From Acidobacteriaceae bacterium (lineage in GTDB: Bacteria; Acidobacteriota; Terriglobia; Terriglobales; Acidobacteriaceae), in contig PKXQ01000107.1 in NCBI GenBank assembly GCA_003132405.1, positions 1-64,000 on the forward strand: a stretch of 64,000 bases of DNA, in the 5' to 3' direction. Each line of letters begins with the position of its first letter. The first letter of the stretch is position 1. Under the pieces are notes generated by a model, which was not told where the DNA came from, did no database searches, and was given only the letters and a program-made list of their open reading frames with translations. Of this stretch, positions 26,980 to 41,511 are shown piece after piece. The translations under genes and the position numbers were made by a program.

Positions 26980-26993
26980 AACAGCCGGTTAGT

Positions 26994-27076
26994 TTGTGAT
27001 TTGCGATTTGTAATAGGCAATTTAAAAAGCAGGCATGCGGGTTGCAATCGCAAATCACAAATCACCAATTACAAAT
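26994..27076. repeat. Inverted pair of heptad arrays (ATTTG/CAAAT type)
   Basis: Left arm at 26,994-27,021 repeats TTGTGAT TTGCGAT-like units every 7 bp. Right arm at 27,042-27,076 repeats CGCAAAT CACAAAT-like units every 7 bp and is roughly the inverse complement of the left. The two are about 20 bp apart, so the element could fold as one hairpin. It lies between the phosphatase and hpt. Confidence 0.75.
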
Positions 27077-27079
27077 GCT

Positions 27080-27649
27080 TCAAAGATTCTCCAACACGCA
27101 AACATCCGGCAAATTCCGATACCGCTCCGCATAATCCAACCCATACCCAACCACATAAGCATCCGGAATGGTGAAGCCGATATATTGCGCCTCGATCGGC
27201 TGCTTGCGCCGCGAAGGCTTATCCAGCAACGCCGCAATCCTCAGCGTCTTCGGCTGATGCGCCTGCACCAGCTTCGAAATATAGTTGAGCGTCAGCCCGG
27301 TATCGAGAATATCCTCCACCAGAATCACGTTGCGCCCCGTCATCGAGCTATCCATATCCTTCGTCAGGCGCACCTCACCTAGCGAATCCCAAGCCGCGTG
27401 CCCTGCCGGATCCTCTTTAACCGTCGGCCGGTTTCCGTAACTCGACACGCCGATAAAATCAAACGTCGCATCGAGCGGAATCTGCCTCGCCAGATCGCCC
27501 AGAAAAATCGCAGCGCCCTTCAGAACGCCGACGAGAATAATCGATTGGCCATCGAAATCGCGCGCAATTTCTTTGCCGAGTTCGGCAACCCGCTTGGCGA
27601 TCGCTTCGCGTGAGATCAATACTTTAAGTTCAGGGGTATGTTCGGGCAT
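27080..27649 (-). CDS. hpt: Hypoxanthine phosphoribosyltransferase
   Basis: Purine-salvage enzyme converting hypoxanthine or guanine plus PRPP to IMP or GMP. It has 189 residues. The PRPP-binding motif ILVEDILDTGLTL is in mid-protein (about 108-120) and the GVLKGAAIFL loop is near residue 42. Length and motifs are normal. Heptad repeats begin within 5 bp of its stop codon. Confidence 0.94.
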   Translation of the reverse strand: MPEHTPELKVLISREAIAKRVAELGKEIARDFDGQSIILVGVLKGAAIFLGDLARQIPLDATFDFIGVSSYGNRPTVKEDPAGHAAWDSLGEVRLTKDMDSSMTGRNVILVEDILDTGLTLNYISKLVQAHQPKTLRIAALLDKPSRRKQPIEAQYIGFTIPDAYVVGYGLDYAERYRNLPDVCVLENL

Positions 27650-27860
27650 AGTGCATCATCTTATACACGACTTTGCCCGCAACGCGAAAACGTTTTAAAT
27701 CAACCTAATATTGTCAGGGCCGCGAGTCTCACGTAAGGGCAGAGCCTGCCCTGAGCTTGTCGAAGGGTGCCCCCACCTGCCCAGCCGAGCAAACGCTCGG
27801 CAGCGTCCGCGCCACGGCAATCTAAAATCCGCTATAAAATAAATTTGCTCGGAGGATTCA

Positions 27861-28562
27861 GTGAACATCAAAGGCATCCATCTAACCTGGCTAGGCCACG
27901 CCACCTTCCGCATCCAGACGCCCGAAGGCAAGACGCTCTACGTCGATCCCTGGATCGCCGGCAATCCCAAGTGCCCCGACGCCGATAAGAACGTCAAGCG
28001 CGCCGACGTCCTCATCTGCACTCACGGCCACGGCGACCACATCGGAGACGCCGTCGATGTAGGCAAAAAGCACAACTCCACCGCCGTCGGCATCTTCGAA
28101 CTCTGCCTCTGGCTCCAGAAAAAAGGTGTCAAACAAATCGCGCCCATGAATAAGGGCGGCACGCAAACCGTCGCCGACGTGAAGATCACCATGGTCCACG
28201 CCGTCCACTCCTGCGGCATTCAGGATGGCGACGAGATCGTCTACGGCGGCGAAGCCTGCGGCTACGTGCTCGAGTTCTCCAACGGAGTCAAGCTCTACCA
28301 CGCCGGCGACACCAACGTCTTCAGCGACATGGCTATCATCCGCGATCTCTACGCGCCCAAAATCGTCATGCTGCCCATCGGCGACCATTTCACCATGTCG
28401 CCGCGCGAGGCCGCCTATGCCTGCAAACTCCTCCAACCCGAAACCGTAATCCCCATGCACTTCGGCACCTTCCCGCAACTGACCGGCACTCCCAGCCAGC
28501 TGCAAAAGCTCGTGCCCGACGTAGAAGTGTTGGAAATGAAGCCAGGCCAAACAATTTCGTGA
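27861..28562 (+). CDS. UPF0173-type metal-dependent hydrolase
   Basis: A 233-residue MBL-fold protein. The family opening LTWLGHATFRI and the zinc motif THGHGDHIGD (about 54-63) are present. Later, YHAGDTNVF and IPMHFGTFP give the remaining ligands. UPF0173 proteins are widespread, with no settled physiological substrate. A GGAGG site lies about 8 nt upstream of the start. A repeat and then the O-methyltransferase gene follow. Confidence 0.92.
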   Translation: MNIKGIHLTWLGHATFRIQTPEGKTLYVDPWIAGNPKCPDADKNVKRADVLICTHGHGDHIGDAVDVGKKHNSTAVGIFELCLWLQKKGVKQIAPMNKGGTQTVADVKITMVHAVHSCGIQDGDEIVYGGEACGYVLEFSNGVKLYHAGDTNVFSDMAIIRDLYAPKIVMLPIGDHFTMSPREAAYACKLLQPETVIPMHFGTFPQLTGTPSQLQKLVPDVEVLEMKPGQTIS

Positions 28563-28590
28563 ACAAACACAAGAATGTCATTGTTTAAGA

Positions 28591-28632
28591 ATTGTCATCC
28601 TGAGCGAAGCGAAGGACCTGCTTTAGGATTTC
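28591..28632. repeat. Dispersed repeat, TCATCCTGAGCGAAGCGAAGG type
   Basis: Copy of the short dispersed element between the UPF0173 and O-methyltransferase genes, ending GACCTGCTTTAGG. A partial inverse (TTCGCTTCGCT) follows at once and could pair with it. Confidence 0.7.
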
Positions 28633-28654
28633 GCTTCGCTGCACAAGGAGCACT

Positions 28655-29320
28655 ATGACCAAACCCACCAAGCCCGAATGGCGCATGGGCGACATCACCG
28701 CCCCCGACGTCGACGACTACCTCTACGCCATGCTCCCGCCGCGCGACGCCGTCCTCACTGAAATGGAGAACGAGGCCGCCCAGCACGACATCCCCATAGT
28801 CGGCCCCGCCGTTGCTCGCATCTTTCATCAACTAGCGACCATCAGCGGCGCCAAGAAAATCTTCGAGATGGGCTCGGCCATCGGATACTCCACCATCTGG
28901 TGGGCGCGCGCCGTAGGCGACACCGGACGCGTCATCTACACCGACGGCGATCCCAAGAACGCCGAAAAAGCTCGCCACTATTTCGAGCGCGCCGGAGTCA
29001 GCAAGCGCATCACCGTCCGCGTAGGCGACGCCCTCGAATTTCTTTCGGAGGAGAAGCAGCCCTACGACATCATCTTCAACGACATCGACAAAACCGATTA
29101 CCCGCGCGTAGTTCGCCTAGCCCTCCCGCGCCTGAAAAGCGGAGGCCTCTTCATCACCGACAACGTCCTCTGGAGCGGCAAGGTCGCGAAGCCCCCCGCC
29201 AATCCCGACGCCCAAACCAAAGCCATCCTCGAATTCAACAAACTGATCTACGAATCAAAAGACCTGTTCACCACCATCCTGCCCATTCGCGACGGCGTCG
29301 CGGTGTGCGTGAAGAAGTAG
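28655..29320 (+). CDS. SAM-dependent O-methyltransferase (CCoAOMT-like)
   Basis: A 221-residue class I methyltransferase of the caffeoyl-CoA/catechol O-methyltransferase family (PF01596). SAM motif I is FEMGSAIGYSTIWWARA (about 69-85), with the acidic YTDGD after it. The metal-binding NDIDKTDYP and DNVLWSG stretches are conserved. Bacterial members methylate catechol-type hydroxyls of varied small molecules; the substrate is unknown. Preceded by an AAGGAG site. Confidence 0.9.
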   Translation: MTKPTKPEWRMGDITAPDVDDYLYAMLPPRDAVLTEMENEAAQHDIPIVGPAVARIFHQLATISGAKKIFEMGSAIGYSTIWWARAVGDTGRVIYTDGDPKNAEKARHYFERAGVSKRITVRVGDALEFLSEEKQPYDIIFNDIDKTDYPRVVRLALPRLKSGGLFITDNVLWSGKVAKPPANPDAQTKAILEFNKLIYESKDLFTTILPIRDGVAVCVKK

Positions 29321-29364
29321 GGAAGGGAACAGTTTGAAATTGTTTTGATTTGAAATTGTTTTGA

Positions 29365-29431
29365 AAGGGCACGGCTTCAGCCGTGCCGTTCACGCCCGCA
29401 AAACTGCGGGCTTTAGCCCCTGGGGGAATGC
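29365..29431. repeat. Diverged hairpin repeat (GGCACGGCTTCAGCCGTGCC)
   Basis: Perfect 8-bp stem GGCACGGC with loop TTCA, then CTGCGGGCTTTAGCCC and a GGGGGAATG end. It resembles the repeats at 13.9 and 20.2 kb in layout. It lies 45 bp after the methyltransferase gene and could serve as its transcript end. Confidence 0.6.
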
Positions 29432-29480
29432 GACAACCGTCCCAATAACTGGGGACCTACTTTAAAAAGTATCACTTAGC

Positions 29481-29516
29481 ATTGTCATCCCGAGCGAAGC
29501 GAGGGATCTGCAGTTT
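29481..29516. repeat. Dispersed repeat, TCATCCCGAGCGAAGCGAGG type
   Basis: Third copy of the short dispersed element, upstream of the antitoxin gene. It is nearly identical to the copy at 14,662. Confidence 0.7.
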
Positions 29517-29610
29517 TCCGGCGCGAACGACGTTGCCGTGTGCGCGAAGAAGCAGGGAAGCGAGGTACTATCATTTTGGCAATCAACAACGTGCCGGAGG
29601 TCAAGATTCC

Positions 29611-29835
29611 GTGAAAGCCTATACCTATTCCGAGGCGCGGCAAAAGTTTGCGACGGTGCTTGAGGAGGCCGAACGCGACGGGGCTGTTGAAATTCGCCGA
29701 CGAGATGGCGCCGTTTTCAGAATCCAACCGGCGCGAAAATCCAATGCGTCGCCGCTCGATGTGAAGGGCGTCAAGCTGAAAATATCCACCTCGGATCTAG
29801 TTGCAATCGTTCGGAAGGGACGTGAGCGCGGATAG
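29611..29835 (+). CDS. Phd/YefM-type antitoxin, no partner toxin
   Basis: A 74-residue protein from a GTG start. An N-terminal Phd/YefM fold (KAYTYSEARQKFATVLEEA, then VEIRRRDGAVFRI) is followed by a disordered toxin-binding tail. Such antitoxins bind DNA and neutralise RelE-like or Doc toxins. No toxin gene follows; the next 290 bp hold only repeats. The frame is open upstream through a repeat copy, but that part is not part of the protein. The stop codon lies inside a GGATAGC heptad array. Confidence 0.7.
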   Translation: MKAYTYSEARQKFATVLEEAERDGAVEIRRRDGAVFRIQPARKSNASPLDVKGVKLKISTSDLVAIVRKGRERG

Positions 29836-29850
29836 CGGATAGCGGATAGA
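29830..29850. repeat. Heptad array GGATAGC x3
   Basis: Three units, GGATAGC GGATAGC and GGATAGA. The first unit supplies the antitoxin stop codon (GGA TAG). Confidence 0.7.
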
Positions 29851-29925
29851 CGATGTGAAGCCCACATCTCGAAAACCGCGAAAAGTAGCGCATTCGGCAT
29901 CCACTTAACGCTGATATCACTGAGG

Positions 29926-29960
29926 GTTGTCATCCTGAGCAAAGCGAAGGACCTGCTTTT
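29926..29960. repeat. Dispersed repeat, TCATCCTGAGCAAAGCGAAGG type
   Basis: Fourth copy of the short dispersed element, ending GACCTGCTTTTTG. The surrounding 29,836-30,129 gap holds nothing else I can identify. Confidence 0.7.
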
Positions 29961-30129
29961 TGCGGCGAATACCTAAGGTGGCACCGAATCTCGGCGAATC
30001 ACCGCCTGCCTTTGGGCGAAATGACGTGGCGATTTAACAATCGCAAAACCCGTTTCTGTTTCGCGGCACGATGTTGAGGCTCATTCATCCCGAAGACCTC
30101 GAAAATAAGGAGTCGACCAAAACGGCTGC

Positions 30130-30969
30130 CTAGTTTTGAGTTAGCTTCGGCGCTGGCTGTGAAGATGTTGGCATTGGTATTTGCATCGGACTTCCATTTA
30201 CACCCTCTGTAATTATGCGCCCTCCTAATTGCTTAACGTCGGAAGCTTTGTTTATGCTGCTGCTTTGAACATCATTAGGGATAATAGCGATGGCGTGCCA
30301 CATCTGGAATGTAACCGAAAAAGATTGACCTGGAGGTGCTGTTAATCCGGGAGGAGGACTGCCAGCCGTCTTTGCTACCTCTGCGAGTTTGCCTAGAGGA
30401 GCAACGATGCCCATTATTCCCGGTCCATTGGAATTGGTACTGATATGGAATGGCGCGCTGACGGCAATTCGCGTATCGTCTAGATAATCAATGGATGCGT
30501 CCATAATTCCGCATAGCAACACCAACCTATAATCGTCTGCAAAACCTGTTAAGCGCGACGTGTCTATGTCCGCCGTGCAGGTTTGCGTTTGTTTCAATGG
30601 GTCACTTGTACCTCCATAAGTCATAATGATGTTAGGCAGTGATCCTGTTGCCCTTACGGTAATAACGCATCCCAAGAGAAGCGATACAAGCGCTACGCTG
30701 GCGACCAAACCACCTATAGAGCCGCGTGCGCTGGCGTCAGTCTTGCGTCGCCTAATCTCATAGAGCAGCCACACAATGGCTGCTAGGCCGATCACCCACC
30801 AGCCAAAATTGCGATATATCTGAAGCAGAGTTGCCACTTTTTCATCCCGAACCGACAGCAAAAAATCTAAGTGCTCCGCATACTCCAAAATCTTGATAAA
30901 AATATCTCCGACCAGCACTACGGTAGGAGCAATTTCTCCTCGTGGCGACGAAGTTGTTGGCGTTTCCAT
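30130..30969 (-). CDS. Hypothetical membrane protein
   Basis: About 279 residues. The ATG at 30969 has a GAGG ribosome site 8 nt upstream; the open frame to 31071 lacks one. Two membrane helices are clear, at about 53-75 (NFGWWVIGLAAIVWLLYEI) and 89-110 (GGLVASVALVSLLLGCVI). The C-terminal two thirds (about 110-279) would lie outside the cytoplasm and end in a Pro/Ser/Thr-rich tail. No known domain is recognised. It is richer in A+T than its neighbours, hinting at different ancestry. Confidence 0.65.
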   Translation of the reverse strand: METPTTSSPRGEIAPTVVLVGDIFIKILEYAEHLDFLLSVRDEKVATLLQIYRNFGWWVIGLAAIVWLLYEIRRRKTDASARGSIGGLVASVALVSLLLGCVITVRATGSLPNIIMTYGGTSDPLKQTQTCTADIDTSRLTGFADDYRLVLLCGIMDASIDYLDDTRIAVSAPFHISTNSNGPGIMGIVAPLGKLAEVAKTAGSPPPGLTAPPGQSFSVTFQMWHAIAIIPNDVQSSSINKASDVKQLGGRIITEGVNGSPMQIPMPTSSQPAPKLTQN

Positions 30970-31200
30970 GCGATTGCCTCGACGTGCTCCTCGCCGAATT
31001 AATTCAACTGAGGATTCAACGTGCGAATGGTACGCTAATTGCCCTCGTGCGTCAAATGCACAATCCGTCAACTTTGCGCTTTAGTTTCTTACAGTTACAT
31101 CTAATTTCTCAATATGATTGTGGGCGAACGGTGAGCGAATATTACCCGCCTATAAACATGCCATTTGGGTGAGTGGTAAAATCATCCCTTTCCCACGCCG

Positions 31201-32289
31201 ATGAAAACCCCCACACTCCCGCAGGTTGAACAAATCCCGGAAACTCTACCCCGCACCCAGCTGCTAGCGGAGCCGGACTCGAACACTGACGTCCTCATCG
31301 TCGGAGCCGGCCCCACTGGCCTGGCCTGCGCTATCGAGATTCAGAAGGCTGGCTTCAAGGCGCTCATCATCGACAAGGGATGCCTCGTCAATTCCATCTA
31401 TCGCTATCCCACTAACATGGTGTTTTTCACCACGCCTGAGCTGCTTGAGATTGGCGACATTCCTTTCACCACCTCAGCGGCGAAGCCTACGCGGCTCGAC
31501 GCGCTCGAATATTACCGCCGCGTCGCCGAGCACTATCATGTCGATGCCCGCCTCTACGAGTGGGTAAAGACCATCACCGGCGAGGACAACGATTTTCGCG
31601 TTGCCACCAGCGATCGCCACGGAGCCATCCACGACTACCGCGCGCGCAAAATTATTCTCGCCACCGGCTATTACGATCTCGCCAACCAACTAGAAATTCC
31701 CGGAGAAGACCTCGAGAAAGTTTTTCACTATTATCGCGAGCCGCATCCCTACTTCGATACCGACGTGCTGGTCATCGGCGGCAAGAACTCGGCGGCCGAG
31801 GCGGCTCTCGATCTGTGGCGTCATGGATCGCGCGTCACCCTCGTCCATCGCGGAGCGCAGATCCATAACCACGTCAAATACTGGGTGCGCCCCGATATCG
31901 AGAACCGCATCAAAGCCGGCCAAATCACCGCGCACTTCAACAGCACGGTGCAGGAGATTCGCGAGGATTGCGTCGTCCTGCGCACTCCCTCGGGCCGCCT
32001 TCGCCTGAAAAATGATTTCGTCTTCGCCCTCACTGGCTACCATCCCGACTACGATTTCCTGCGCAGTGCAGGCGTTGAATTCGCCACGGAACAGATGCGT
32101 CCAGTCTGCGACCCTGAGACCCTGGAATCGAATGTTCTGGGAATGTACGTTGCGGGCGTGATCGTTGCCGGTTCGCGGACGAATGAAATCTTCATCGAGA
32201 ATGGGCGCTTCCACGGCAAGCTGATCGCCCGTCACCTCGCCGAAAAGCTGGGCGGAAGCAACCCGAATTTTCCTCTTGACGCCACTTGA
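31201..32289 (+). CDS. ypdA: YpdA-like FAD/NAD(P)-dependent disulfide reductase family protein
   Basis: A 362-residue flavoprotein. The FAD motif is DVLIVGAGPTGLACAIE (about 30-46) and the NAD(P) motif is VLVIGGKNSAAEAALDL (about 178-194). The segment KGCLVNSIYRYPTNMVFFTT is characteristic of YpdA (Bdr), the NADPH-dependent reductase of bacillithiol disulfide. The usual thioredoxin-reductase CxxC is absent, as expected for YpdA. Whether this organism makes bacillithiol is not shown here. It is the last C-rich plus-strand gene before the parS site. Confidence 0.9.
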   Translation: MKTPTLPQVEQIPETLPRTQLLAEPDSNTDVLIVGAGPTGLACAIEIQKAGFKALIIDKGCLVNSIYRYPTNMVFFTTPELLEIGDIPFTTSAAKPTRLDALEYYRRVAEHYHVDARLYEWVKTITGEDNDFRVATSDRHGAIHDYRARKIILATGYYDLANQLEIPGEDLEKVFHYYREPHPYFDTDVLVIGGKNSAAEAALDLWRHGSRVTLVHRGAQIHNHVKYWVRPDIENRIKAGQITAHFNSTVQEIREDCVVLRTPSGRLRLKNDFVFALTGYHPDYDFLRSAGVEFATEQMRPVCDPETLESNVLGMYVAGVIVAGSRTNEIFIENGRFHGKLIARHLAEKLGGSNPNFPLDAT

Positions 32290-32323
32290 GGGCGGTCGGG
32301 AAAAGGAGAACACTTAGCAAAAA

Positions 32324-32339
32324 TGTTCCACGTGGAACA
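32324..32339. promoter_or_regulatory. parS centromere site (ParB binding)
   Basis: TGTTCCACGTGGAACA matches the bacterial parS consensus TGTTNCACGTGNAACA at every defined position. It is the centre of a perfect 22-bp palindrome (32,321-32,342). The 14 fixed positions make a chance match in a window of this size very unlikely. ParB binds such sites to drive origin segregation. It sits in an AT-rich 254-bp gap where plus-strand base composition changes from C-rich to G-rich. No other parS match was found in the window. Confidence 0.85.
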
Positions 32340-32440
32340 TTTGTAGTTGCAGTTATGTATTCATGATACTGTACGTATATAATTGCGTAGTCGAATGTGT
32401 CGTACGTCATTGATAATACTGATGAAGCTTACTATGCGCG
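32340..32440. other. AT-rich segment next to parS, candidate unwinding region
   Basis: About 100 bp clearly richer in A+T than surrounding genes, with TATATAAT-like and TATGTATTCATGATAC stretches. No exact DnaA box (TTWTNCACA) is found in it. I flag it as the most likely place for origin unwinding if the origin is here, at low confidence. Confidence 0.3.
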
Positions 32441-32478
32441 GGCGGCGCGCCCATCGCGGGGGTAGTCGATTGTCCACT

Positions 32479-32516
32479 GTGGAATCCCACCCTAACGTCG
32501 AAGAGCACGTTAGGAT
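32479..32516. repeat. GTGGAATCCCAC / CCTAACGT hairpin repeat, copy 1
   Basis: GTGGAATCCCAC followed by CCTAACGT and its complement ACGTTAGG (8-bp stem, 8-nt loop). A related copy is at 34,180-34,222. The two copies bracket the region around the candidate origin. Confidence 0.65.
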
Positions 32517-32543
32517 GGTGCGCCCGGCCAACGAACCGCTTGC

Positions 32544-33560
32544 CTAGGCGGCTTTGCGCGGTTCCTCCGTGTCAGTCTTTTCCTGGTCGGAGCTTGCTTC
32601 ACGAGTAAAAGAAAGATTTGGCGCGCCGGTTTTCTCCAGGCTTCTTCGCTTTCTCCACCGGCTGAGAGATGGCACCAGGACGCCGATGAGGATCACCAAA
32701 ACGGCAAAGCCGATCAGGAGCACTAAGGTCGTCCCGTGCCTGGTGGGCGCAGCGGGAGTGGTGGCGGCCGCATCCGTGGTGCCAGCGGTCTCCGGCGATG
32801 GGGTGGCGGGCGCAGCGGGTGTAGCGGCGGCTGCGGCAGGCTGGCTGGCAGTCTCCGCTGACTCGCTGGCAGTGACATCCGGTGCAGTCGCGACTGCGGC
32901 GGTTGTTGCCGAACGTCTTCGCGAATGGACTGGAACCGTCTGGTCGGCGGCGTCCGCGGCAGATTTGTCCCAATCCGGAGTGCTGGCAGCCGCAGCCGGA
33001 GCAGCGGCAACGACGGTGGACGCCATGTCAGTTTCTGCTGCCGGAGTCGCGTCTACAGCGGGTGTGGCGGCAGTCTCCGCAGGTGTGTTGACAGTCGCAA
33101 CGGGCGGGGCGGGCGCGGAGGCGTCCGCAGCGGGTGCGACCTCAGTCTCCGCAACCGTATTGCTGGTAGTGGCAGCGGCAGGCGGCGGGACGGCATTATC
33201 GGCGGGCGTGGTGACAGTCGCGGTCGGTACGGCGGCGGCCACAGCGCAGTGCTCGGAGATCATGTTGAGTTCGCTAACGGCAAAGGTGTTATCAGCAGCG
33301 TCGGGACTCGCCGCACTTGCACTTCCTCTATGCCCGATGAGGGTTACGTCATGTCCCACATGCTGATTGAGATCGACACCGCTGGCAGTGACCCTGAAAG
33401 TGTGTCCGGTGCCATCTTCCGCAACTGTGTAGTTGCCGTCCGAGCCCGCCAGGCAACCCTTAATAGTCTGGTCTGGATTGGTGCTCGCCGCGGGAGTCTG
33501 TGCAAACCCCAGCGCGACCAGCAGGGCCGGTAGAACGATCAACAGCAATGCTCTCTTCAT
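32544..33560 (-). CDS. Exported Ala/Thr/Pro-rich protein with C-terminal membrane anchor
   Basis: A 338-residue protein. A signal peptide (MKRALLLIVLPALLVALGFA) is followed by a small domain (about 30-105) of the GCLAGSDGNYTV...GHTFRVTASG kind. I associate this with an Acidobacteriota-enriched exported domain (DUF5818-like, from memory). Residues about 110-275 are low-complexity Ala/Thr/Pro/Val, probably an extended wall-spanning linker. A single membrane helix (TLVLLIGFAVLVILIGVLV, about 280-298) and a basic SRWRKRRS stop-transfer follow, then a charged cytoplasmic tail. It is the first gene right of the parS gap. Function unknown. Confidence 0.7.
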   Translation of the reverse strand: MKRALLLIVLPALLVALGFAQTPAASTNPDQTIKGCLAGSDGNYTVAEDGTGHTFRVTASGVDLNQHVGHDVTLIGHRGSASAASPDAADNTFAVSELNMISEHCAVAAAVPTATVTTPADNAVPPPAAATTSNTVAETEVAPAADASAPAPPVATVNTPAETAATPAVDATPAAETDMASTVVAAAPAAAASTPDWDKSAADAADQTVPVHSRRRSATTAAVATAPDVTASESAETASQPAAAAATPAAPATPSPETAGTTDAAATTPAAPTRHGTTLVLLIGFAVLVILIGVLVPSLSRWRKRRSLEKTGAPNLSFTREASSDQEKTDTEEPRKAA

Positions 33561-33832
33561 GGAATCCTCCGAAGATTCTCGCCTCGCGGCGTTCTAGAAT
33601 TTCGCTTGGGATTTGCTTCTGTTCCCGATTCTGATGTCGAACCCTCGAGGCTTTCGGATTCCGGCGTGAGAACTTAAAACATCCAGGTGAAACAGGACGA
33701 TGGTATTCGGTGAGAACTTGGCTGTCTGTTCCAAACGGCTCACATTTTGAGTTTTAAGTGGAAGACTGCGAGTATCGCACGACGGACGGTGTAATTCAAT
33801 TGAAGTACAATAAGGGGAGAAGGAGTTTTCTC

Positions 33833-34126
33833 ATGCCGGCGAATGCGTTGGTGCAAACACGGATCGATCCTGCCGTGAAAGAGCGGGCGGCGGTGGTGCT
33901 GGGAAAAATGGGGATCACCATCTCGGACGCGGTGCGCATTCTGTTGACGCGGACCGCGAACGAAGGCGAACTCCCTTTCACGCTGACCAGTAATGCCGCC
34001 CATGATGCATGGTTCCGCGCCAAGGTGCAGGAAGCGCTGGATGATCCGCGTCCGGGTATTCCACATAAGAAGGTTGAGGCGCATTTCTCCAGGCGGCGCG
34101 CCGCCGCGCCGCGCAAGATGCGATAG
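33833..34126 (+). CDS. RelB/DinJ family antitoxin
   Basis: A 97-residue protein with a strong AAGGAG site. The ribbon-helix-helix segment is ALVQTRIDPAVKERAAVVLGKMGITISDAVRILLTR (residues about 5-40), typical of RelB/DinJ. The C-terminal part would bind a RelE/YafQ-type toxin and is basic here. No toxin gene follows; instead there is a broken second antitoxin. It may be an orphan regulator or the residue of a degraded module. Confidence 0.82.
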   Translation: MPANALVQTRIDPAVKERAAVVLGKMGITISDAVRILLTRTANEGELPFTLTSNAAHDAWFRAKVQEALDDPRPGIPHKKVEAHFSRRRAAAPRKMR

Positions 34127-34179
34127 TTAAGAAATGCGAACGTGTGGTGCACGCGAAAAACCCCAACCACCGTGCGGCA

Positions 34180-34222
34180 GTGGAATCCCACTATAACGTC
34201 GAAAAACGCGACAGTTAGGATG
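34180..34222. repeat. GTGGAATCCCAC hairpin repeat, copy 2
   Basis: GTGGAATCCCAC and a CTATAACGTCG arm facing CGACAGTTAGG. Diverged copy of the element at 32,479. It lies directly upstream of the broken antitoxin gene. Confidence 0.6.
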
Positions 34223-34227
34223 AGCGC

Positions 34228-34461
34228 CTGAGTCCGGAAGTTTACGATCTTCTCAAACGCGCGCTTGCTCTCCCGGTCGACGAGCGTGCGGCATTGGCTA
34301 ACACGCTGCTGGATACGCTGGCTAGGACGGACAATTCTGTGCCAGAGGCTTGGGATGCGGAAGTGGCTCATCGCATTGAAGACCTCAAGGCGGGCAAGGC
34401 AGTTACCGTTCCCTGAGAAGAACTGCATCGTGAGCTGTTGGCCATGGTGAATGAGCGGTAA
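34228..34461 (+). pseudogene. Addiction-module antitoxin (PF09720-like), disrupted
   Basis: The frame reads LSPEVYDLLKRALALPVDER, then ALANTLLDTL and EAWDAEVAHRIEDLKAGK. This matches the short helical antitoxins that usually pair with RelE/ParE toxins. It begins with CTG where a start codon is expected, with an AGGA site upstream. A TGA at 34,414-34,416 interrupts it. The frame continues after the TGA (EELHRELLAMVNER) to a TAA at 34,459. Loss of start and an internal stop suggest decay, though CTG initiation is possible. No toxin is next to it. Confidence 0.7.
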
Positions 34462-34468
34462 GTGGTTT

Positions 34469-34545
34469 AACCCCGGCGGCTAAAGCCTGTCTCCAAGCAA
34501 TGCAGATACCGCAGCGCTGAAGCGCTGCGCCACCCAAAGTCTCCC
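34469..34545. repeat. Dispersed GC-rich hairpin repeat, inverted copy
   Basis: CCGGCGGCTAAAGCC, then GCAGCGCTGAAGCGCTGCGCCACCC. Inverse-complement copy of the element at 20,203-20,279, directly upstream of miaB. Confidence 0.7.
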
Positions 34546-34572
34546 CGTTGGATGGTGGTTTATACTGGCTCC

Positions 34573-35901
34573 ATGTCGGACGCTGCCTCCAAGACGTTTT
34601 ACCTTGAAACTTTTGGCTGCCAGATGAATGCTCACGACTCGGAGAAAGTTGTGGGGACGCTTTTGGCGCAGGGGTATCGGCAGGTTCCTACGGTGGAGGA
34701 GGCGGGGCTGGTGCTTTATAACACTTGCTCGATCCGCGATAAGGCGGAGCAGAAGGTGTTTAACCGGCTGGCCGATTATAAGAAGTACCGGGCGCAGGGG
34801 AAGAAGTTTGGCGTCCTGGGGTGCGTGGCGCAGCAGGAGGGGGAGAGGATTTTTGAGCGCGCTCCGTATGTGTCGCTGGTGTGCGGGTCGGCTTCTTATC
34901 GGAATCTGCCGCAGATGCTGGTGCAGTTGGAGACGGGTTCGTCGCGCGTGACTGGGCTCGACGATCGCATGACGGACGAGTGCTTTGAGACGGAGTTTGC
35001 GGCGCGCACGAATCCGCATCGCGGGTATATCACGATTATTGAAGGATGCGATAAGTTTTGCGCTTATTGCGTGGTGCCGTTTACGCGCGGGAAGGAGCGG
35101 TCGCGGACTTCGGCGTCGGTGTTGGAAGAAGCGCGGCAGCTGGCGGATCTGGGGTATACGGAGATTCAACTGCTCGGGCAAAACGTTAACTCTTATCGCG
35201 ATCCTTCTGGATTAAAAAGCTTTGCGGAGTTGCTGGTGGCGGTGGCTTCGGTTGTTGGAATTCGGCGGGTGCGGTTTACTACTTCGCATCCTCGAGACTT
35301 TGGGCGGGATATTGTGGAGGCGATCGATGCAGTGCCGGCGCTTTGCAATCACGTGCATCTGCCGGTGCAGAGCGGGTCGACGCGGGTGCTGGACGCGATG
35401 TCGCGGCTCTATACGCGGGATGAATATCTGGAGCGGATTTCGTGGATTCAAGCGGCGCGGCGGGATATTTCGCTGACTTCGGATTTGATTGTGGGGTTTC
35501 CGGGGGAGACGGAGCGGGAGTTTGAAGAGACTTTGTCGCTGATGGATTTAGTGGGATACGATTCAGTTTTTACTTTCAAGTATTCGCCGCGGCCGAATAC
35601 TCCGGCGCTGCGGTTGGAGGATGCGATTCCGGAGGCGGAGAAGGCGCGGCGGCTGGCAGTTTTGAACGATCGGCAGAAGCAGATTGGGACGCGGCGCAAT
35701 CAGCGGCATGTGGGGCAGATCGTTGAAGCGATGGTAGAAGGGAAGAACGCGGCGCGCGGGCAGTGGGTGGGGCGGACTTCGCAGATTAAGGTGCTGAATT
35801 TTACGGTACCGGCGGGCGTGGAGTTGGCAGCGGGGAGCTATGTTGATGTGCGCGTGACGGGATGTTTTCCGAATAGTTTGGTGGGGGAGTTGGCGGTCTA
35901 G
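34573..35901 (+). CDS. miaB: tRNA-2-methylthio-N6-dimethylallyladenosine synthase MiaB
   Basis: Radical-SAM methylthiotransferase modifying A37 of tRNAs, 442 residues from the ATG at 34573. The N-terminal domain binds an auxiliary 4Fe-4S cluster through C16, C52 and C84. The radical-SAM cluster ligands are in GCDKFCAYC (C159, C163, C166). The C-terminal TRAM domain begins at about 370. All motifs are present. The base composition is strikingly G-rich on this strand, unlike plus-strand genes left of 32 kb. Confidence 0.96.
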   Translation: MSDAASKTFYLETFGCQMNAHDSEKVVGTLLAQGYRQVPTVEEAGLVLYNTCSIRDKAEQKVFNRLADYKKYRAQGKKFGVLGCVAQQEGERIFERAPYVSLVCGSASYRNLPQMLVQLETGSSRVTGLDDRMTDECFETEFAARTNPHRGYITIIEGCDKFCAYCVVPFTRGKERSRTSASVLEEARQLADLGYTEIQLLGQNVNSYRDPSGLKSFAELLVAVASVVGIRRVRFTTSHPRDFGRDIVEAIDAVPALCNHVHLPVQSGSTRVLDAMSRLYTRDEYLERISWIQAARRDISLTSDLIVGFPGETEREFEETLSLMDLVGYDSVFTFKYSPRPNTPALRLEDAIPEAEKARRLAVLNDRQKQIGTRRNQRHVGQIVEAMVEGKNAARGQWVGRTSQIKVLNFTVPAGVELAAGSYVDVRVTGCFPNSLVGELAV

Positions 35902-35915
35902 AGTTTGAGGTCATT

Positions 35916-36401
35916 ATGGAAGTGGAAATGAAAATTCGCGGACTCATGATGGATCCGGTGTCGAACATGCCAATCGTGCTGCTCAAGGATGTCGGCAGCG
36001 ATACGGTGCTGCCGATCTGGGTCGGTATTTACGAGGCGAATGCAATTGCGCTGGAGATTGAGAAGGTGAATACTCCGCGGCCGATGACACATGATTTGAT
36101 CAAGAACGTGCTCACTGGGCTCGATGCGTTGGTTCATAAGGTGGTGGTGACAGAATTAAAGGATGACACTTTTTACGCAGTCATCTGGCTGGAGCGGGAA
36201 GGGCACGTGATCAGCATCGACTCGCGTCCGTCGGATGCGCTGGCGCTGGCGTTGCGGGTGGATTGCCCGATTTTTGTCGAGGACGAGGTGCTGAAAAACT
36301 CCAAACAGGCCGCCAATCCTGTGCCCGCGGTGAACAGCGAGGAGCTGCGGAAATGGCTGGAAGACCTGGGCGATGACGACCTGGGGAAGTACAAGATGTA
36401 G
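35916..36401 (+). CDS. Bifunctional nuclease family protein (DUF151)
   Basis: A 161-residue protein of the DUF151/BFN family: MKIRGLMMDPVSNMPIVLLKD, WVGIYEANAIALEIEK and SIDSRPSDALALALRVDCPI are diagnostic. A plant member has been described as a nuclease, but the bacterial role is unclear. It follows miaB by 14 nt and is probably co-transcribed. A perfect heptad array starts 3 nt after its stop. Confidence 0.9.
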   Translation: MEVEMKIRGLMMDPVSNMPIVLLKDVGSDTVLPIWVGIYEANAIALEIEKVNTPRPMTHDLIKNVLTGLDALVHKVVVTELKDDTFYAVIWLEREGHVISIDSRPSDALALALRVDCPIFVEDEVLKNSKQAANPVPAVNSEELRKWLEDLGDDDLGKYKM

Positions 36402-36403
36402 GG

Positions 36404-36437
36404 CAGCTGTCAGCTCTCAGCTGTCAGCTCTCAGTTA
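36404..36437. repeat. Heptad array CAGCTGT/CAGCTCT
   Basis: Four perfect alternating units, CAGCTGT CAGCTCT twice, then a CAGTTAA remnant. It directly follows the DUF151 stop. Confidence 0.8.
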
Positions 36438-36497
36438 ATTCGGCGGGGTCGGACTTGCTCGTGATCACCTTATCCCTCTACGCAGAAATTTCAACTT

Positions 36498-36824
36498 ATG
36501 GCTGATTCGGCGGAACAGCTCCAGCGCATTTACCTGGCGGGATTTGAATTGCAGACATTTGAGCGCTATCCGAAGTGCGTGGGCGTCGTGCGCGACGGTT
36601 GCGTCGCATTGCTGGTGCCGGGGATGGATGGGTTGCAGATTCTTGGAACGCCGGGGTGGCGCATGGGCGAAGTGATGGGCGTGCTCACCGAGCGCGGCGG
36701 GCGGAAGGTATTTCAGGCTAAGAGCGAAGAGGTACAGGCTACGCCTGAGCGGCTTACGGCGCTGGAGAAATTCCGGGACGATTTGCGGGAACTGCTGCGG
36801 GGGCCGAGCCAGAGCATTCAGTAG
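36498..36824 (+). CDS. Conserved hypothetical protein
   Basis: A 108-residue soluble protein without a signal peptide. It starts MADSAEQLQRIYLAGFELQT; the centre (VVRDGCVALLVPGMDGLQI) is beta-like and the last 30 residues helical. I do not recognise a family. It is in line with miaB-DUF151 but separated by the heptad array. Confidence 0.65.
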   Translation: MADSAEQLQRIYLAGFELQTFERYPKCVGVVRDGCVALLVPGMDGLQILGTPGWRMGEVMGVLTERGGRKVFQAKSEEVQATPERLTALEKFRDDLRELLRGPSQSIQ

Positions 36825-37080
36825 ACGCGGTTGCGCCACGGGATCAGTGAAATCGAACTGGCCAGATCTGAGATGTCATTCGCCCCCCCCTATGGTCGAC
36901 TTTACATAATACCTGTTATCGGACATTACTACTCATTCGCAATCTCGACCGTCTTGGACCTCGTAACCGGCCCGAGCTGCGATCTGTGCCGACGCGTCCA
37001 TGGTAGCGGTCTCCCCACGACGGCGGACCGTATTTCCCTGCAGCTAGCGCCTCCCTGCGCGTGAGATTCAAAGTGATTCG

Positions 37081-37285
37081 TTATTTTGTTGCGTTCGACT
37101 TGTAAGGCGATGGGCGCAGCGAATGATGTTTCCCAGCGACCTGTGCGAGCGGACTGCAGCTATCGCTGCCCGTCAGCGTCGTATTGGTAACGTTCATGAA
37201 GGTATTCGTACCAATTGAGTTGCCCGAGCTGCTTGGACCGACCAAAATCCCGGCGCAGGCTTCGTTAATCGTATAGTGTTTACGG
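37081..37285 (-). pseudogene. Displaced C-terminal end of the beta-helix protein
   Basis: In the neighbouring frame the sequence YTINEACAGILVGPSSSGNS, then GTNTFMNVTNTTLTG, continues the beta-helix repeat pattern to a stop at 37,081. The main frame instead turns into RLTKPAPGFWSVQ. This points to a small insertion or deletion near 37,270-37,285, by mutation or base-calling error. Confidence 0.65.
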
Positions 37286-38375
37286 TGTTGCTGCTTCCGG
37301 TAGAGGGCGAGCACGAATCGTCCAAGTGGATGCCGGACTGAGCGCTGCCGTAGATCGTATTCGATTCCGCCGTATTCCCATCGCTGCAAAGATCGAGGGC
37401 ATCGAAATTCTGCGTTCCGCCCACGTGGTTCGACTTAATGATCGTGCCGTCTGCAGTTAGAGACGCCGATGCCGTCGCGGGGACAATGGCAAGCTGCGTG
37501 CTCTCCACCGTATTGCTGGTGACGGTGATGCCGGCCGAGCCATAGATCAAGATCCCAGACGACCCGGTGCAGTTCGGCGCACAGCCCGGGGGGTTTATGT
37601 AGATGTCGTCAGCCACCTCGTTGCTCGTGACTGATCCCGTCGCGCCAAAGCCTATCTGGATACCGTTCTGGGCGATGACCGTGGTAGCGCCTAGACCGAT
37701 CACGGTGTTCGCGGTGACTGCGGCGACTGGTCCCGCCGCGCCGGTGCCCGGGCCGCTCACAGTAATTCCATTCTTGTCGTAGTTGCGCACGGAATTATCG
37801 GAAATGGTGATTGGCAAAGCGCCGTTGTCGCTTTCCACGTTGATCGCCAAGCCGAGTTGGCAGCCTTGGTCCGCCGGGTCCATGAGCACATCTCGGACGG
37901 CGTTGTCGGTTATCTTGCCGGAGGAATTCTGGTAGTAGATTCCTATCGGGTTAGGTGCACCGCAACCTGACAGCTGGTTGTTATTGCCATCTATGGTGAG
38001 ATGGGAAACCGTGACGTCCGCGCCACCTTGAACAAAGATCTGCGCGGCTACGGGATTGCCACCGATGTCCGAACCATTCTGAACCAGGCCGGTGGCTGGC
38101 GTTACCACCACCGCGGCGTCGCTGGTACCACTTGCAATTCCAATCAACGTCAGGTTCTTAGCGATCGTAACTTGCTCGGGGTAACTATTAGGGCAGACGT
38201 CAACCGTACCTCCAGCTGGAACAGCGTTGACAGCAGCCTGGATGGTGGCAAACTGTACCCCAGTCTTACAGGTACCGACTACTACGGTGGACGCTTGGGC
38301 AATTGGTTGGGCAAAACAAGCTGCAAGGACTACCATTGTGAACGCACTTAGGCGTAAGAAACTACTCTTGAACAT
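37194..38375 (-). CDS. Secreted right-handed parallel beta-helix protein (frameshifted end)
   Basis: A 393-residue protein. A signal peptide is present (first about 28 residues, ending QASTVVV). ATIQAAVNAVPAGGTVDVCP is the usual entry to pectate-lyase-like or NosD-like beta-helices. Repeated strands with Asn ladders follow (ITVTSNTVEST, KSNHVGG). Such proteins bind or cleave polysaccharides extracellularly, but no catalytic residues can be assigned. The last about 30 residues break the repeat pattern; the true end appears to be in another frame (37,081). A 21-bp tandem repeat lies upstream. Confidence 0.8.
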   Translation of the reverse strand: MFKSSFLRLSAFTMVVLAACFAQPIAQASTVVVGTCKTGVQFATIQAAVNAVPAGGTVDVCPNSYPEQVTIAKNLTLIGIASGTSDAAVVVTPATGLVQNGSDIGGNPVAAQIFVQGGADVTVSHLTIDGNNNQLSGCGAPNPIGIYYQNSSGKITDNAVRDVLMDPADQGCQLGLAINVESDNGALPITISDNSVRNYDKNGITVSGPGTGAAGPVAAVTANTVIGLGATTVIAQNGIQIGFGATGSVTSNEVADDIYINPPGCAPNCTGSSGILIYGSAGITVTSNTVESTQLAIVPATASASLTADGTIIKSNHVGGTQNFDALDLCSDGNTAESNTIYGSAQSGIHLDDSCSPSTGSSNTVNTIRLTKPAPGFWSVQAARATQLVRIPS

Positions 38376-38412
38376 ACTCCTCCATACTTTCTTCCTTCAG
38401 TTTTTTTATATT

Positions 38413-38454
38413 GAGAGTTACCTGGCACTAATAGAGAGTTACCAGACACTAATA
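38413..38454. repeat. 21-bp tandem repeat (three heptads), two units
   Basis: Two copies of a 21-bp unit beginning GAGAGTTACC and ending ACTAATA, with two differences. It lies between the beta-helix gene and truB. The unit is three heptads long, so it may belong to the heptad family. Confidence 0.65.
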
Positions 38455-38539
38455 GGACGAAGAGGAGCGTGGGCGTAGCGTGCTTTTATTATAGCCCAGA
38501 TTGCGAGCGAAATGCCGCGCCAGAAAACTATTTTCGGCG

Positions 38540-39427
38540 TCAGCCGGTAGATCCGCTGAAGACGATTCCCGGATGGAAGAGCGTGCCTGCGATTCTTGTG
38601 GCTATGGCGATCAGGTCGCGCTGGCCGTAGAAGACTTTGACCTGCGGGGCGCGGGACATTTCCGGCAAATTTACCGAGCGTCCGCTGCGGATCAGAGCGG
38701 CGGTTTCTTGGGTCGCGCTCACGCTCGGCAATTGCGGCACCAGGTTTCTGGGATGGACAAATAATGACTCGGCAGTTCCCTGCTGGCGCGCGGCCTCTAG
38801 CGCTTCGAGCGTGTGGGCGTCTTCGGTGGCGAACTCGGCGACCGCGGTACGACGGAGGCTGGCGAGATGAGCGCCGCATCCCAGTTTCTGACCCATTTCG
38901 TGAGCAACCGACCGGATATAGGTGCCGGAGGCTACGCGGGCTCGGAAGGTGGCTTTATTGGCGGTCGTGTCCAGAATCTCGAATTCTTTGATTTCTACTT
39001 GAACTGGCTTGAGGGTGACTTCTTTATTCTTGCGGGCGAGTTTGTAGGCGGGGACACCGGCAATTTTCTTGGCGGAAAAAGGCGGCGGCATCTGCTCGAT
39101 GACGCCTTGAAACTGCGCGGCGAGAGCGCGCACATCGTCACAATTGAGTTGGACGTCTTGCTGCGGTGTGGTTGGCGCGCCCTCAGCATCGTAAGTTTCA
39201 GTGGCAAAGCCGAAGCGGATCACCCCTTCATAGGTCTTTTCGGAGTGGGCGTAGAACTGCGCCAAACGGGTGAGATTGCCGAGGACGATGGGGAGAACAC
39301 CGGTGGCGGAGGGGTCAAGGGTTCCGAGATGACCGACTGCACGCTGGCCTAGAATCCGGCGCACGCGATTGACCACGTCGTGCGAGGTGAGGCCGGCGGG
39401 CTTATCGATGATGACGACACCGTTCAT
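38540..39427 (-). CDS. truB: tRNA pseudouridine synthase B
   Basis: Forms pseudouridine 55 in the T loop of tRNAs, 295 residues from the ATG at 39427 (MNGVVIIDKPAGLTSHDVV). The catalytic Asp lies in HLGTLDPSATGVLP (about 37-50), and GTYIRSVAHEMGQKLG is the second family motif. The frame is open upstream, but that part is heptad repeat. Complete. Divergent from the rhomboid gene across a heptad hairpin. Confidence 0.95.
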   Translation of the reverse strand: MNGVVIIDKPAGLTSHDVVNRVRRILGQRAVGHLGTLDPSATGVLPIVLGNLTRLAQFYAHSEKTYEGVIRFGFATETYDAEGAPTTPQQDVQLNCDDVRALAAQFQGVIEQMPPPFSAKKIAGVPAYKLARKNKEVTLKPVQVEIKEFEILDTTANKATFRARVASGTYIRSVAHEMGQKLGCGAHLASLRRTAVAEFATEDAHTLEALEAARQQGTAESLFVHPRNLVPQLPSVSATQETAALIRSGRSVNLPEMSRAPQVKVFYGQRDLIAIATRIAGTLFHPGIVFSGSTG

Positions 39428-39430
39428 GGG

Positions 39431-39537
39431 GATTTGTAATCTGATAATTTGTAATTGGTAATTTAAAGGCAAGCCGCGTCTGATCGAATTGATCGTGATT
39501 TGAAACTACCAATTACAAATTACACATTGCCAATTAA
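39431..39537. repeat. Inverted pair of heptad arrays between truB and rhomboid
   Basis: Left arm 39,431-39,470 has TTGTAAT CTGATAA-like units. Right arm 39,503-39,537 has ATTACAA ATTACAC-like units, inverse to the left. The arms lie directly against the two divergent start codons, so the promoters must overlap them. Confidence 0.75.
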
Positions 39538-40236
39538 ATGATTCCTCTTCGTGACGACCAGCCGACCTTCTCGACGCCGTTCGTCAATTATTTTCTGATC
39601 GTGCTCAATGTGCTGGTTTTTATGTGGGAGCTTTCGGTCAGCCATAGGGCTCTGGCCGGGTTCATGTTTGAGTTCGGAGTGGTGCCTCACCACGTTCTGG
39701 CCGTGCTAAGCGGCCATTCGCCCGATCCGGCGGCAACGGCGATCGTGCCCTTGTTTGCCTCGATGTTTCTGCACGCTTCATTCTTACACGTCGCGGGCAA
39801 TATGTTGTTTCTGTGGATCTTCGGCGACAACGTCGAAGATCACCTGGGCCATTTCACCTATCTGGTGTTTTATTTGCTCAGCGGAGTTGCGGCGGGCGTT
39901 ACGCATATTCTATTGAACCAGGCATCGCGCGTGCCGAGCGTGGGCGCGAGCGGCGCGATTGCCGGGGTGATGGGAGCGTACTTCATTCTTTATCCCCGGG
40001 CGCGGGTGCTCGTGTGGTTTCCACCGATATTCTTTTTTCACGTTCCGGCGTGGCTAATGCTCGGCTACTGGTTCGTGATAAATTTCCTGAGCGGAACTGC
40101 GACCGCAGTCGCCGAAACCAGCCAGACCTCGGGCGGAGTTGCATTCTGGGCGCACGTGGGAGGATTTGTCGCGGGCGTGATCATGGTTAACGTGTTTCCT
40201 GAGCGGCGGCATCGGTATCGGTATGGGACGTGGTAG
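39538..40236 (+). CDS. Rhomboid family intramembrane serine protease
   Basis: A 232-residue membrane protein with six or more helices. The HASFLHVAGNMLFLWIFG segment precedes the catalytic Ser in GASGAIAGVMGAY (about 140-152). The His is in WAHVGGFVAG near residue 208. The opening IPLRDDQPTFSTPFVNY is typical of bacterial rhomboids of this subfamily. It should cleave transmembrane substrates within the inner membrane. Confidence 0.93.
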   Translation: MIPLRDDQPTFSTPFVNYFLIVLNVLVFMWELSVSHRALAGFMFEFGVVPHHVLAVLSGHSPDPAATAIVPLFASMFLHASFLHVAGNMLFLWIFGDNVEDHLGHFTYLVFYLLSGVAAGVTHILLNQASRVPSVGASGAIAGVMGAYFILYPRARVLVWFPPIFFFHVPAWLMLGYWFVINFLSGTATAVAETSQTSGGVAFWAHVGGFVAGVIMVNVFPERRHRYRYGTW

Positions 40237-40247
40237 GGCTGGAGGCG

Positions 40248-40275
40248 GGTGACAGGTCGCAGGTGACAGGAAAAG
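40248..40275. repeat. Heptad array GGTGACA/GGTCGCA
   Basis: Units GGTGACA GGTCGCA then GGTGACA and GGAAAAG. The whole 28 bp recurs exactly, inverted, at the 44.9-kb array. Confidence 0.8.
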
Positions 40276-40287
40276 CCGCGGTTTAGC

Positions 40288-40674
40288 CTAGCGTCGCGGT
40301 TCTGGCGCGGGGCCCGGAGGCAGAATCTCCACTTCTCCAGGAGACCTGGGATTGGGTTCGTAATCGGGCGTGAGGTTGTCATTCGAACCGTCGCTTACTT
40401 GCTGGCGAGTGACGAACCAGACGGCCGTCGTCCAGGTGGGGAAAAGATCGGCGCCGGGAATCAGTTTGGCGGCGGCGGTGGGCAGGAAAGCCCAGTGCCA
40501 TCCGAGCAGGCGAATCATGACGTAGGCGACGGCCAAGTCTAGGATGGAGTCGGCGGGCGATAGAGCTCCCTCGACGAAGAGAGGGAAGGCAGCGATCTGC
40601 AGAGCGTCGGCGGCGATGGCTACGGCCCAGGCGATGCGCTGCTCGGGGTCTTTGAAGTGTTCGAGGAATGACAT
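40288..40674 (-). CDS. Hypothetical membrane-associated protein
   Basis: A 128-residue protein with two or three hydrophobic helices in the first 90 residues (AWAVAIAADALQIAAFPLF; SILDLAVAYVMIRLLGWHWAFL). A Pro-rich soluble tail follows. No family is recognised. It lies tail to tail with the rhomboid gene. Confidence 0.65.
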   Translation of the reverse strand: MSFLEHFKDPEQRIAWAVAIAADALQIAAFPLFVEGALSPADSILDLAVAYVMIRLLGWHWAFLPTAAAKLIPGADLFPTWTTAVWFVTRQQVSDGSNDNLTPDYEPNPRSPGEVEILPPGPAPEPRR

Positions 40675-40749
40675 GGCTTCGGATGACGGTCGTTCGTCAT
40701 TGGCTGACTCCAGTGTGTTTAGATGCCTGGCGGGGCTTCGGAGTCGCCG

Positions 40750-41499: not shown

Positions 41500-41511
41500 T
41501 ACGTTGGGCTC

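What the first reader, a model, noticed from the sequence alone, without database searches (positions are those of the whole stretch)
32290..34560. parS site at a base-skew switch: candidate replication origin region
TGTTCCACGTGGAACA (32,324-32,339) fits the parS consensus exactly and extends to a 22-bp palindrome. Left of it the plus strand is C-rich in genes of either orientation (pst genes, lysA, phosphatase, UPF0173). Right of it the plus strand is G-rich in genes of either orientation (32,544 gene, miaB, truB, P-ATPase). A change from C-rich to G-rich marks an origin in most bacteria, and parS sites cluster at origins. No dnaA, gyrB or rnpA is in the window, and no DnaA-box cluster is seen, so an origin not linked to dnaA is implied. 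Most genes would be head-on to the forks.
Basis: partly seen in the sequence, partly recalled or inferred. Interest (0 to 1): 0.85.

Follow-up and report, generated by a model that had tools for sequence, protein, structure and literature searches.

The report
Scattered centromere sites resembling replication origins
In a group of uncultured soil and peat bacteria, chromosome-segregation sites are scattered around the chromosome instead of sitting only at the replication origin, and the DNA on either side of most of them has the strand bias normally seen only at an origin, which hints that a bacterial chromosome may have many origin-like centres.

Summary
The parS (32,324-32,339) and the skew switch are real, but this is not the single chromosomal origin. 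The draft genome (Acidobacteriaceae-type) has 17 exact parS at 15 loci on 13 contigs; one locus is parAB on contig C24, the other 14, this one included, are dispersed. Unexpectedly, most dispersed parS have an origin-type switch: 12 of 12 own loci with adequate flanks, 51 of 56 loci in 14 genomes; control gaps 100 of 218. Four-fold-site skew follows the side of parS, not gene strand, roughly cancels between two neighbouring sites, and a sum of parS-centred terms with constant and strand terms fits 47% of gene-level variance (0 of 500 random placements). In one conserved gene pair the sign differs with the side parS lies on (three species). In this genus several sites are positionally conserved, favour convergent genes and carry GTAC-type boxes absent from 12 origin parS. 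Best reading: dispersed parS elements are origin-like centres of outward replication (0.45); rival: a ParB/SMC-centred strand-asymmetric process (0.3). Marker-frequency data would decide.

The parts
32324..32339 (.). parS 16-mer TGTTCCACGTGGAACA
   Evidence: exact match
32321..32342 (.). 22-bp perfect palindrome containing parS
32340..32351 (+). TTTGTAGTTGCA arm next to parS, similar in form (about TTTGTRGTNGCA, read by eye) to several other dispersed sites of this genome
   Evidence: flank listing
32354..32359 (+). GTAC-type box (TATGTA)
   Evidence: enrichment at dispersed parS
32370..32379 (+). GTAC-type box (TGTACGTATA)
   Evidence: enrichment
32402..32407 (.). GTAC-type box (GTACGT)
32340..32440 (.). 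A+T-rich flank, 63% A+T against 43% for the window
1..32323 (.). left skew domain, plus strand C-rich; corrected four-fold skew -0.19 to -0.49 in 6-kb bins
32340..64000 (.). right skew domain, plus strand G-rich in most bins; in the corrected profile it continues to about 108 kb of the 233-kb contig
31201..32289 (+). left flanking gene, FAD-dependent thioredoxin-reductase-like (called ypdA here by eye; no family search run); four-fold skew -0.365
32547..33560 (-). right flanking gene, no Pfam match

Best explanation
The site is one of 14 dispersed parS loci known in this draft genome. Each is a composite element: a parS (presumably bound by the chromosomal ParB) plus, in this genus, short GTAC-type boxes in somewhat A+T-rich DNA, often in the gap between convergent genes. 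Each works as an origin-like centre: in at least part of the cells replication forks leave it in both directions, so the DNA on each side is copied outward and collects the bias (G over C on the outward strand) seen at the main origin, and neighbouring centres cancel in between. Shown: the sites, the parA, parB and smc genes, the strand-independent outward asymmetry, its position at parS, its roughly additive behaviour, its relation to parS position in two ortholog sets, positional conservation of several sites, the second motif. Inferred: ParB binding, fork initiation, and an initiator that reads the GTAC boxes.
For: Up-step at 51 of 56 dispersed loci against 100 of 218 control gaps. Outward-strand four-fold skew is positive for genes of both strands in all six groups (near 0 for outward genes outside the genus) and; averaged over inward and outward genes it is positive in all 8 four-fold codon families, so it is not a motif or codon effect (worked out from the rows). 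In several genomes the A/T part at dispersed sites has the sign of the origin region: G000 -0.067 and -0.171, G131 -0.074 and -0.151, G223 +0.026 and +0.088, G002 +0.108 and +0.11 at 40 kb. In G002 four dispersed steps (0.35-0.37) exceed that at the locus homologous to parAB (0.30), in G012 one (0.34 against 0.28-0.30). Superposition: about 0 between sites 33 kb apart, -0.50 and +0.49 just outside; R2 0.47 over 503 genes, length scale 40-60 kb, 0 of 500 random placements as good. Ortholog comparisons. GTAC-type boxes at 14 of 15 own dispersed copies, 0 of 12 origin copies in five genus genomes.
Against: No known bacterial chromosome uses many origins (recalled; abstracts state a single origin as the rule). 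No DnaA-box excess at dispersed sites of G000, G002, G014, G006 (0 hits each; G009 1 hit, G223 2); no initiator recognised among the ten window proteins scanned; none was looked for elsewhere in the genome. Genes near dispersed genus sites point inward (336 of 577), unlike at origin loci (47 of 81 outward), and still do without the adjacent genes (273 of 481). Five of 56 loci do not step up. Up-steps without a parS exist (C151 about 42 kb, C25 about 36 kb). On C151 and C25 the 5-kb peak lies about 3 kb from the parS at 105.6 and 110.1 kb. Dispersed G223 sites have no GTAC boxes (0 of 8) yet step up weakly. A/T signs do not agree in G009 (-0.016 against +0.085) and in G002 within 10 kb (-0.07 +- 0.15 at the origin); G206, G015 and G012 are uninformative. 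No replication measurement.
Confidence: 0.45

Rival explanations
1. ParB/SMC-centred asymmetry without initiation. ParB loads at each dispersed parS and recruits SMC, which moves outward; something tied to that outward movement exposes or repairs one strand preferentially, giving the same G-rich outward strand. The skew at the main origin would then also be partly parS-made.
For: parA, parB and smc are present. The step is at or near parS, also in G223 whose sites lack the GTAC boxes. In G015 the switch lies at the parS cluster, about 30 kb from dnaA. The inward gene bias would not matter.
Against: No known step of SMC or ParB movement is strand-asymmetric (recalled). Bacteria with off-origin parS such as B. 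subtilis are not known to me to show such switches (recalled, not tested here). A second motif would not be needed.
Confidence: 0.3
2. Placement or relic: parS elements are kept where an older, unrelated skew switch lies (former origins, integrated replicons, rearranged segments), and parS does not cause the switch.
For: Some up-steps have no parS. Some relatives without a parS at the ypdA-miaB junction still show a smaller step, up to 0.127. In the second ortholog set G011, G021 and G023 have shifted skew with no parS seen on the same contig piece.
Against: Species with conserved gene order differ in skew according to where parS lies: G000 between (-0.45, +0.12), G005 to the left (+0.17, +0.20), G001 to the right (-0.66, -0.29). 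ypdA and miaB keep order and orientation in 9 species without parS there, so no inversion breakpoint is needed at the window site.
Confidence: 0.12
3. Transcription artefact: parS sits between convergent genes and coding strands are C-rich, which alone makes an up-step.
For: Convergent neighbours at 20 of 47 dispersed genus loci against 44 of 317 gaps on three own contigs; coding-strand four-fold skew is -0.079.
Against: Genes of both strands show the side effect; control convergent gaps step up in only 11 of 30; non-coding DNA also shows it, -0.04 and +0.04.
Confidence: 0.03

Closest known systems
Chromosomal ParABS (B. subtilis Spo0J-parS, Caulobacter, Pseudomonas)
   Same: Same 16-bp parS family; parA-parB genes with parS beside them; SMC present.
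   Different: Known parS sites lie mostly close to the origin (passage of PMC5815017 seen). Here they are dispersed, composite in this genus, often between convergent genes, and at local skew switches.
Multi-origin chromosomes of archaea and N-shaped skew domains of mammals
   Same: Several up-steps of skew at defined sites with decline in between (the N-shape is recalled).
   Different: Multiple origins are stated for archaea (start of abstract of PMC4595724); replication domains of human cells are in the listing (start of abstract of PMC3320577). Not known to me in a bacterial chromosome.
Iteron origins of plasmids and chromids with a parS nearby (e.g. Vibrio chromosome 2; recalled)
   Same: parS next to short repeated boxes in A+T-rich DNA.
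   Different: No rep gene recognised beside the window element; many copies per chromosome; boxes irregular.

Membership tests
Chromosomal parS site | match to the 16-bp parS palindrome | tested here: met
   0 mismatches
Chromosomal parS site | parA-parB genes with parS of the same sequence in the genome | tested here: met
   C24: parB 40190, parS 38622 and 38727; ParA-like and ParB-like reading frames in L003
Chromosomal parS site | core changes together with that of other sites in the genome | tested here: met
   GTTCCAC core in G000 against GTTTCAC core in G009 and G006 at conserved gene junctions; the G009 origin cluster has the same core as its dispersed sites
Chromosomal parS site | bound by ParB in cells | not testable with these tools
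   needs ChIP-seq
Chromosomal parS site | located near the origin | tested here: not met
   parB and dnaA lie on other contigs; the window contig extends 32 kb to one side and 200 kb to the other without either. Distance on the closed chromosome is unknown
DnaA-type oriC | cluster of DnaA boxes | tested here: not met
   no cluster of one-mismatch boxes in the window. The same scan found none near dnaA or parAB of G000 either, but one next to the parS cluster of G131, so it is a weak test
DnaA-type oriC | origin-type GC-skew switch | tested here: met
DnaA-type oriC | genome-wide cumulative skew minimum | tested here: inconclusive
   draft in 158 contigs; a stronger switch lies at C24 parAB
Replication origin (any kind) | replication starts there | not testable with these tools
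   needs marker frequency or fork-direction data
Iteron-type origin | ordered direct repeats read by a Rep protein | tested here: inconclusive
   GTAC-type boxes strongly enriched but spacing irregular by eye; no Rep sought genome-wide

The most novel reading that the evidence does not exclude
A bacterial lineage replicates one chromosome from a main origin plus a dozen or so dispersed secondary origins, each marked by a composite parS plus GTAC-box element read by ParB and an unknown initiator, leaving a sawtooth skew like that of archaeal and eukaryotic chromosomes.
Probability: 0.38. Interest if true: 0.97.

Novelty: categorically new. Interest (0 to 1): 0.86.

Why it matters
Textbook bacterial chromosomes have one origin, and GC skew is read as its signature. 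Here the same signature is centred on scattered segregation sites in one genus and, more weakly, in related genera. Either some bacteria start replication at many places, or ParB/SMC loading leaves a strand-specific mutation footprint that has been read as replication skew. Both are surprising and both can be tested: the first with read depth of existing metagenomes or a culturable relative, the second with mutation accumulation in smc or parB mutants. It also warns against calling origins from a local skew switch plus a parS.

Tried and rejected
Single alternative origin at 32.3 kb: rejected, since the 12 dispersed own loci that could be measured behave alike and the parAB locus is stronger. 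Transcription or convergent-gene artefact: rejected as sole cause. Inversion breakpoint or mis-assembly at the window site: ypdA-miaB order and orientation are kept in 9 relatives without parS there, and single-contig relatives G223, G131 and G206 also show the step. Double-strand-break repair started at parS: by reasoning only, expected to give the opposite sign. Motif-driven skew: effect present in all 8 codon families. DnaA boxes at dispersed sites: 0 hits in G000, G002, G014 and G006, 1 in G009, 2 in G223; the other genomes were not scanned. Degenerate parS (up to 4 mismatches) at up-steps without parS: none in C151 38-48 kb, C25 136-146 kb and C142 178-188 kb, one 4-mismatch hit in C151 58-68 kb; the C25 36-kb step was not scanned.

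Selection and dropped rows: eight loci with under 2 kb on a side were dropped, two of them own. One G007 site with a 198-bp right flank, difference -0.329, was not counted. Of 8 one-mismatch G179 sites four were fetched (-0.004, +0.066, +0.095, +0.063 at 5 kb) and not counted. One counted G012 site (L108) has a one-mismatch core. All loci were fetched for G000, G002, G015, G223, G131 and G206; only part for G014 (4 of 11 loci), G016 (2 of 7), G019 (2 of 6), G011 (1 of 10), G009 (7 of 9), G006 (10 of 18 copies); none as a skew set for the other genus members. Partial sets were chosen mainly for contig length before their skew was seen. The genomes were chosen because they had sites away from the origin. 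In one search all 17 own copies step up, three with a flank under 1 kb (two at one C6 locus, one on C151). Orthologous loci in several species are not independent, so the sign-test P of 1e-10 is too small. Gene calls are from my own simple caller.

Full report
OBSERVATION. The window holds one exact parS, 32,324-32,339, inside a 22-bp palindrome. The window is the first 64 kb of a 233,174-bp contig (C142) of a 5.72-Mb draft of 158 contigs, 88.8% complete. Records encoding the left flanking protein are Acidobacteriaceae/Terriglobia metagenome assemblies (best 80 shown); the genus is unnamed here. GC skew changes from about -0.1 to +0.1 at the site, the largest up-jump of the contig.

WHERE THE MAIN ORIGIN IS. 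parB is on C24 with two exact parS beside it and the strongest switch of the 15 loci (-0.20 to +0.23 at 5 kb). dnaA is on C97, where skew is -0.14 to -0.26 throughout the 35 kb read. Of 13 single-contig family members, the main parS cluster lies within 60 kb of dnaA in 10; exceptions are G179 (about 140 kb) and G223 (about 410 kb), and G227 was not computed for want of its exact length. So the window site is very unlikely to be the chromosomal origin.

DISPERSED SITES. The genome has 17 exact copies at 15 loci on 13 contigs, against about 0.001 expected. The other 23 genus members have 0 to 13 exact copies, and some use the TTTCACGTGAAA form. Several dispersed sites sit at the same gene junction in two or three species even when the core differs (G000 L014 with G009 L190; G000 L022 with G009 L184 and G006 L197; G014 L076 with G006 L192; G002 L067 with G011 L203 and G015 L199).

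THE SKEW STEP. A palindrome has no direction and the sign of a step does not change on reverse complementing, so contig orientation cannot bias the test. All 17 own copies step up at 5 kb, three with a flank under 1 kb. Over 56 dispersed loci with at least 2 kb each side in 14 genomes, 51 step up, mean 0.126: 40 of 44 in the genus, 11 of 12 outside. Control gaps more than 15 kb from parS on three own contigs: 100 of 218 up; convergent gaps 11 of 30. In the averaged profile the last 500 bp before and the first 500 bp after parS read -0.157 and +0.079 in G002, -0.103 and +0.008 in G000, where the right side goes on rising over some kb; outside the genus the change is small and gradual (-0.028 and +0.005). 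Single profiles are noisier: on C142 and at C25 77 kb the 5-kb peak is within 0.3 kb of parS, at C25 110 kb and C151 106 kb about 3 kb away.

NOT TRANSCRIPTION. At four-fold sites within 5 kb (own genome, parAB locus left out), plus-strand skew is -0.337 and -0.280 on the left for plus and minus genes, +0.240 and +0.233 on the right. G002 within 8 kb: -0.434 and -0.260, +0.399 and +0.514. Outside the genus the side effect is weaker and mixed with a coding effect (-0.238 and -0.031; +0.014 and +0.229). Averaging inward and outward genes, every codon family has a positive outward skew of about 0.15 to 0.25 (worked out from the rows).

SUPERPOSITION. On C25, with sites at 77 and 110 kb, corrected skew is -0.50 just left, near 0 between, +0.49 just right. 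A sum of decaying sign functions centred on parS, with a constant and a strand term, explains 47% of the variance over 503 genes at a length scale of 40-60 kb; random placements average 4.5%, at most 20%. Fit is poor on C151 (r 0.17), L014 (0.17) and L009 (-0.21, where parS is at the contig end), and C151 and C25 have up-steps without parS.

ORTHOLOGS. At the ypdA-miaB junction, of the species with the pair adjacent, only G000 and G012 have a parS (that of G012 with one mismatch). Their miaB minus ypdA four-fold difference is 1.12 and 1.06, against mean 0.28, maximum 0.88, in 9 species without. For the convergent pair at C150, 18 species have both genes: G000 (parS between) -0.45 and +0.12, the largest difference (0.571; next 0.478, no parS); G005 (parS left of both) +0.17 and +0.20; G001 (parS right of both) -0.66 and -0.29. 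Against this, G011 looks like G001, and G021 and G023 have a positive left gene like G005, with no parS found on the same contig (G011); their contigs there are short or were read in part. Species relatedness was not corrected for.

THE ELEMENT. Dispersed genus sites carry GTAC-type boxes (TACGTACA, TACATACA, TATGTACA and the like) within 60 bp: 14 of 15 copies in G000, 10 of 10 G006, 5 of 5 G009, 4 of 4 G014, 3 of 3 G015, 8 of 12 G002, against 0 of 12 origin copies in five genus genomes and 0 of 8 dispersed copies in G223; chance is about 0.1 hits per site. Convergent neighbours occur at 20 of 47 dispersed genus loci against 44 of 317 gaps. In the window, boxes lie at 32,354, 32,370 and 32,402 in a 63% A+T stretch. 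Step size does not follow box number: G002 has large steps with few boxes.

INTERPRETATION. An outward, gene-strand-independent G-over-C bias is the signature of bidirectional replication. In G000, G131, G223 and, at 40 kb, G002 the A/T part has the same sign at dispersed sites and at the origin region; G009 and G002 at 10 kb do not agree, G206, G015 and G012 are uninformative. I therefore favour origin-like replication from dispersed elements (0.45). A ParB/SMC-centred process cannot be excluded (0.3), because parS is the common factor and in G223 the second motif is missing. The inward bias of genes speaks against frequent firing.

LITERATURE. Searches for parS with GC skew and dispersed sites, Acidobacteria with GC skew and origins, parS distribution, multiple origins in bacteria, parB/parS with Acidobacteria or Terriglobus, distant parS with SMC, N-domains, skew with condensin and parS, and parS with Acidobacteriota showed no report of this pattern in the rows listed. 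Searches listed only 15 of 105, 15 of 41, 10 of 105 and 12 of 17 papers. I saw listings with starts of abstracts, plus passages of PMC2804667 and PMC5815017. The 2007 survey of parS sites by Livny et al. is not held. Absence from print is therefore not shown.

Noticed in passing
32481-32525 and 34182-34226: Two copies of a hairpin-like repeat (GGAATCCCA...AACGTCGAA...TTAGGATG) lie on either side of two small genes next to parS; a similar sequence is in relative G020. Possibly a REP-like family.
   Followed up: no
33758-34126: RelB/PaaA2-type antitoxin-like gene (Pfam) close to the parS.
   Followed up: no
L004 (G000:C140): Second ParB-domain protein beside a protein that looks antirestriction-like by eye, perhaps on a mobile element.
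   Followed up: partly
L023 6725 (G000:C28): A one-mismatch parS also lies at an up-step (-0.015 to +0.141 at 5 kb), so degenerate sites may count too.
   Followed up: partly
L226, L224, L068, L225 and L227 (G002 C25, 138-237 kb): Around the G002 locus homologous to parAB, skew falls sharply at about 153 kb and is negative for a short stretch at 198-208 kb, with no parS within 3 mismatches there: small inversions or unmarked centres.
   Followed up: no
L077 and L080: An orthologous dispersed parS in G014 and G016 that steps down in both species; with L188 of G009 (-0.158) the clearest exceptions.
   Followed up: partly
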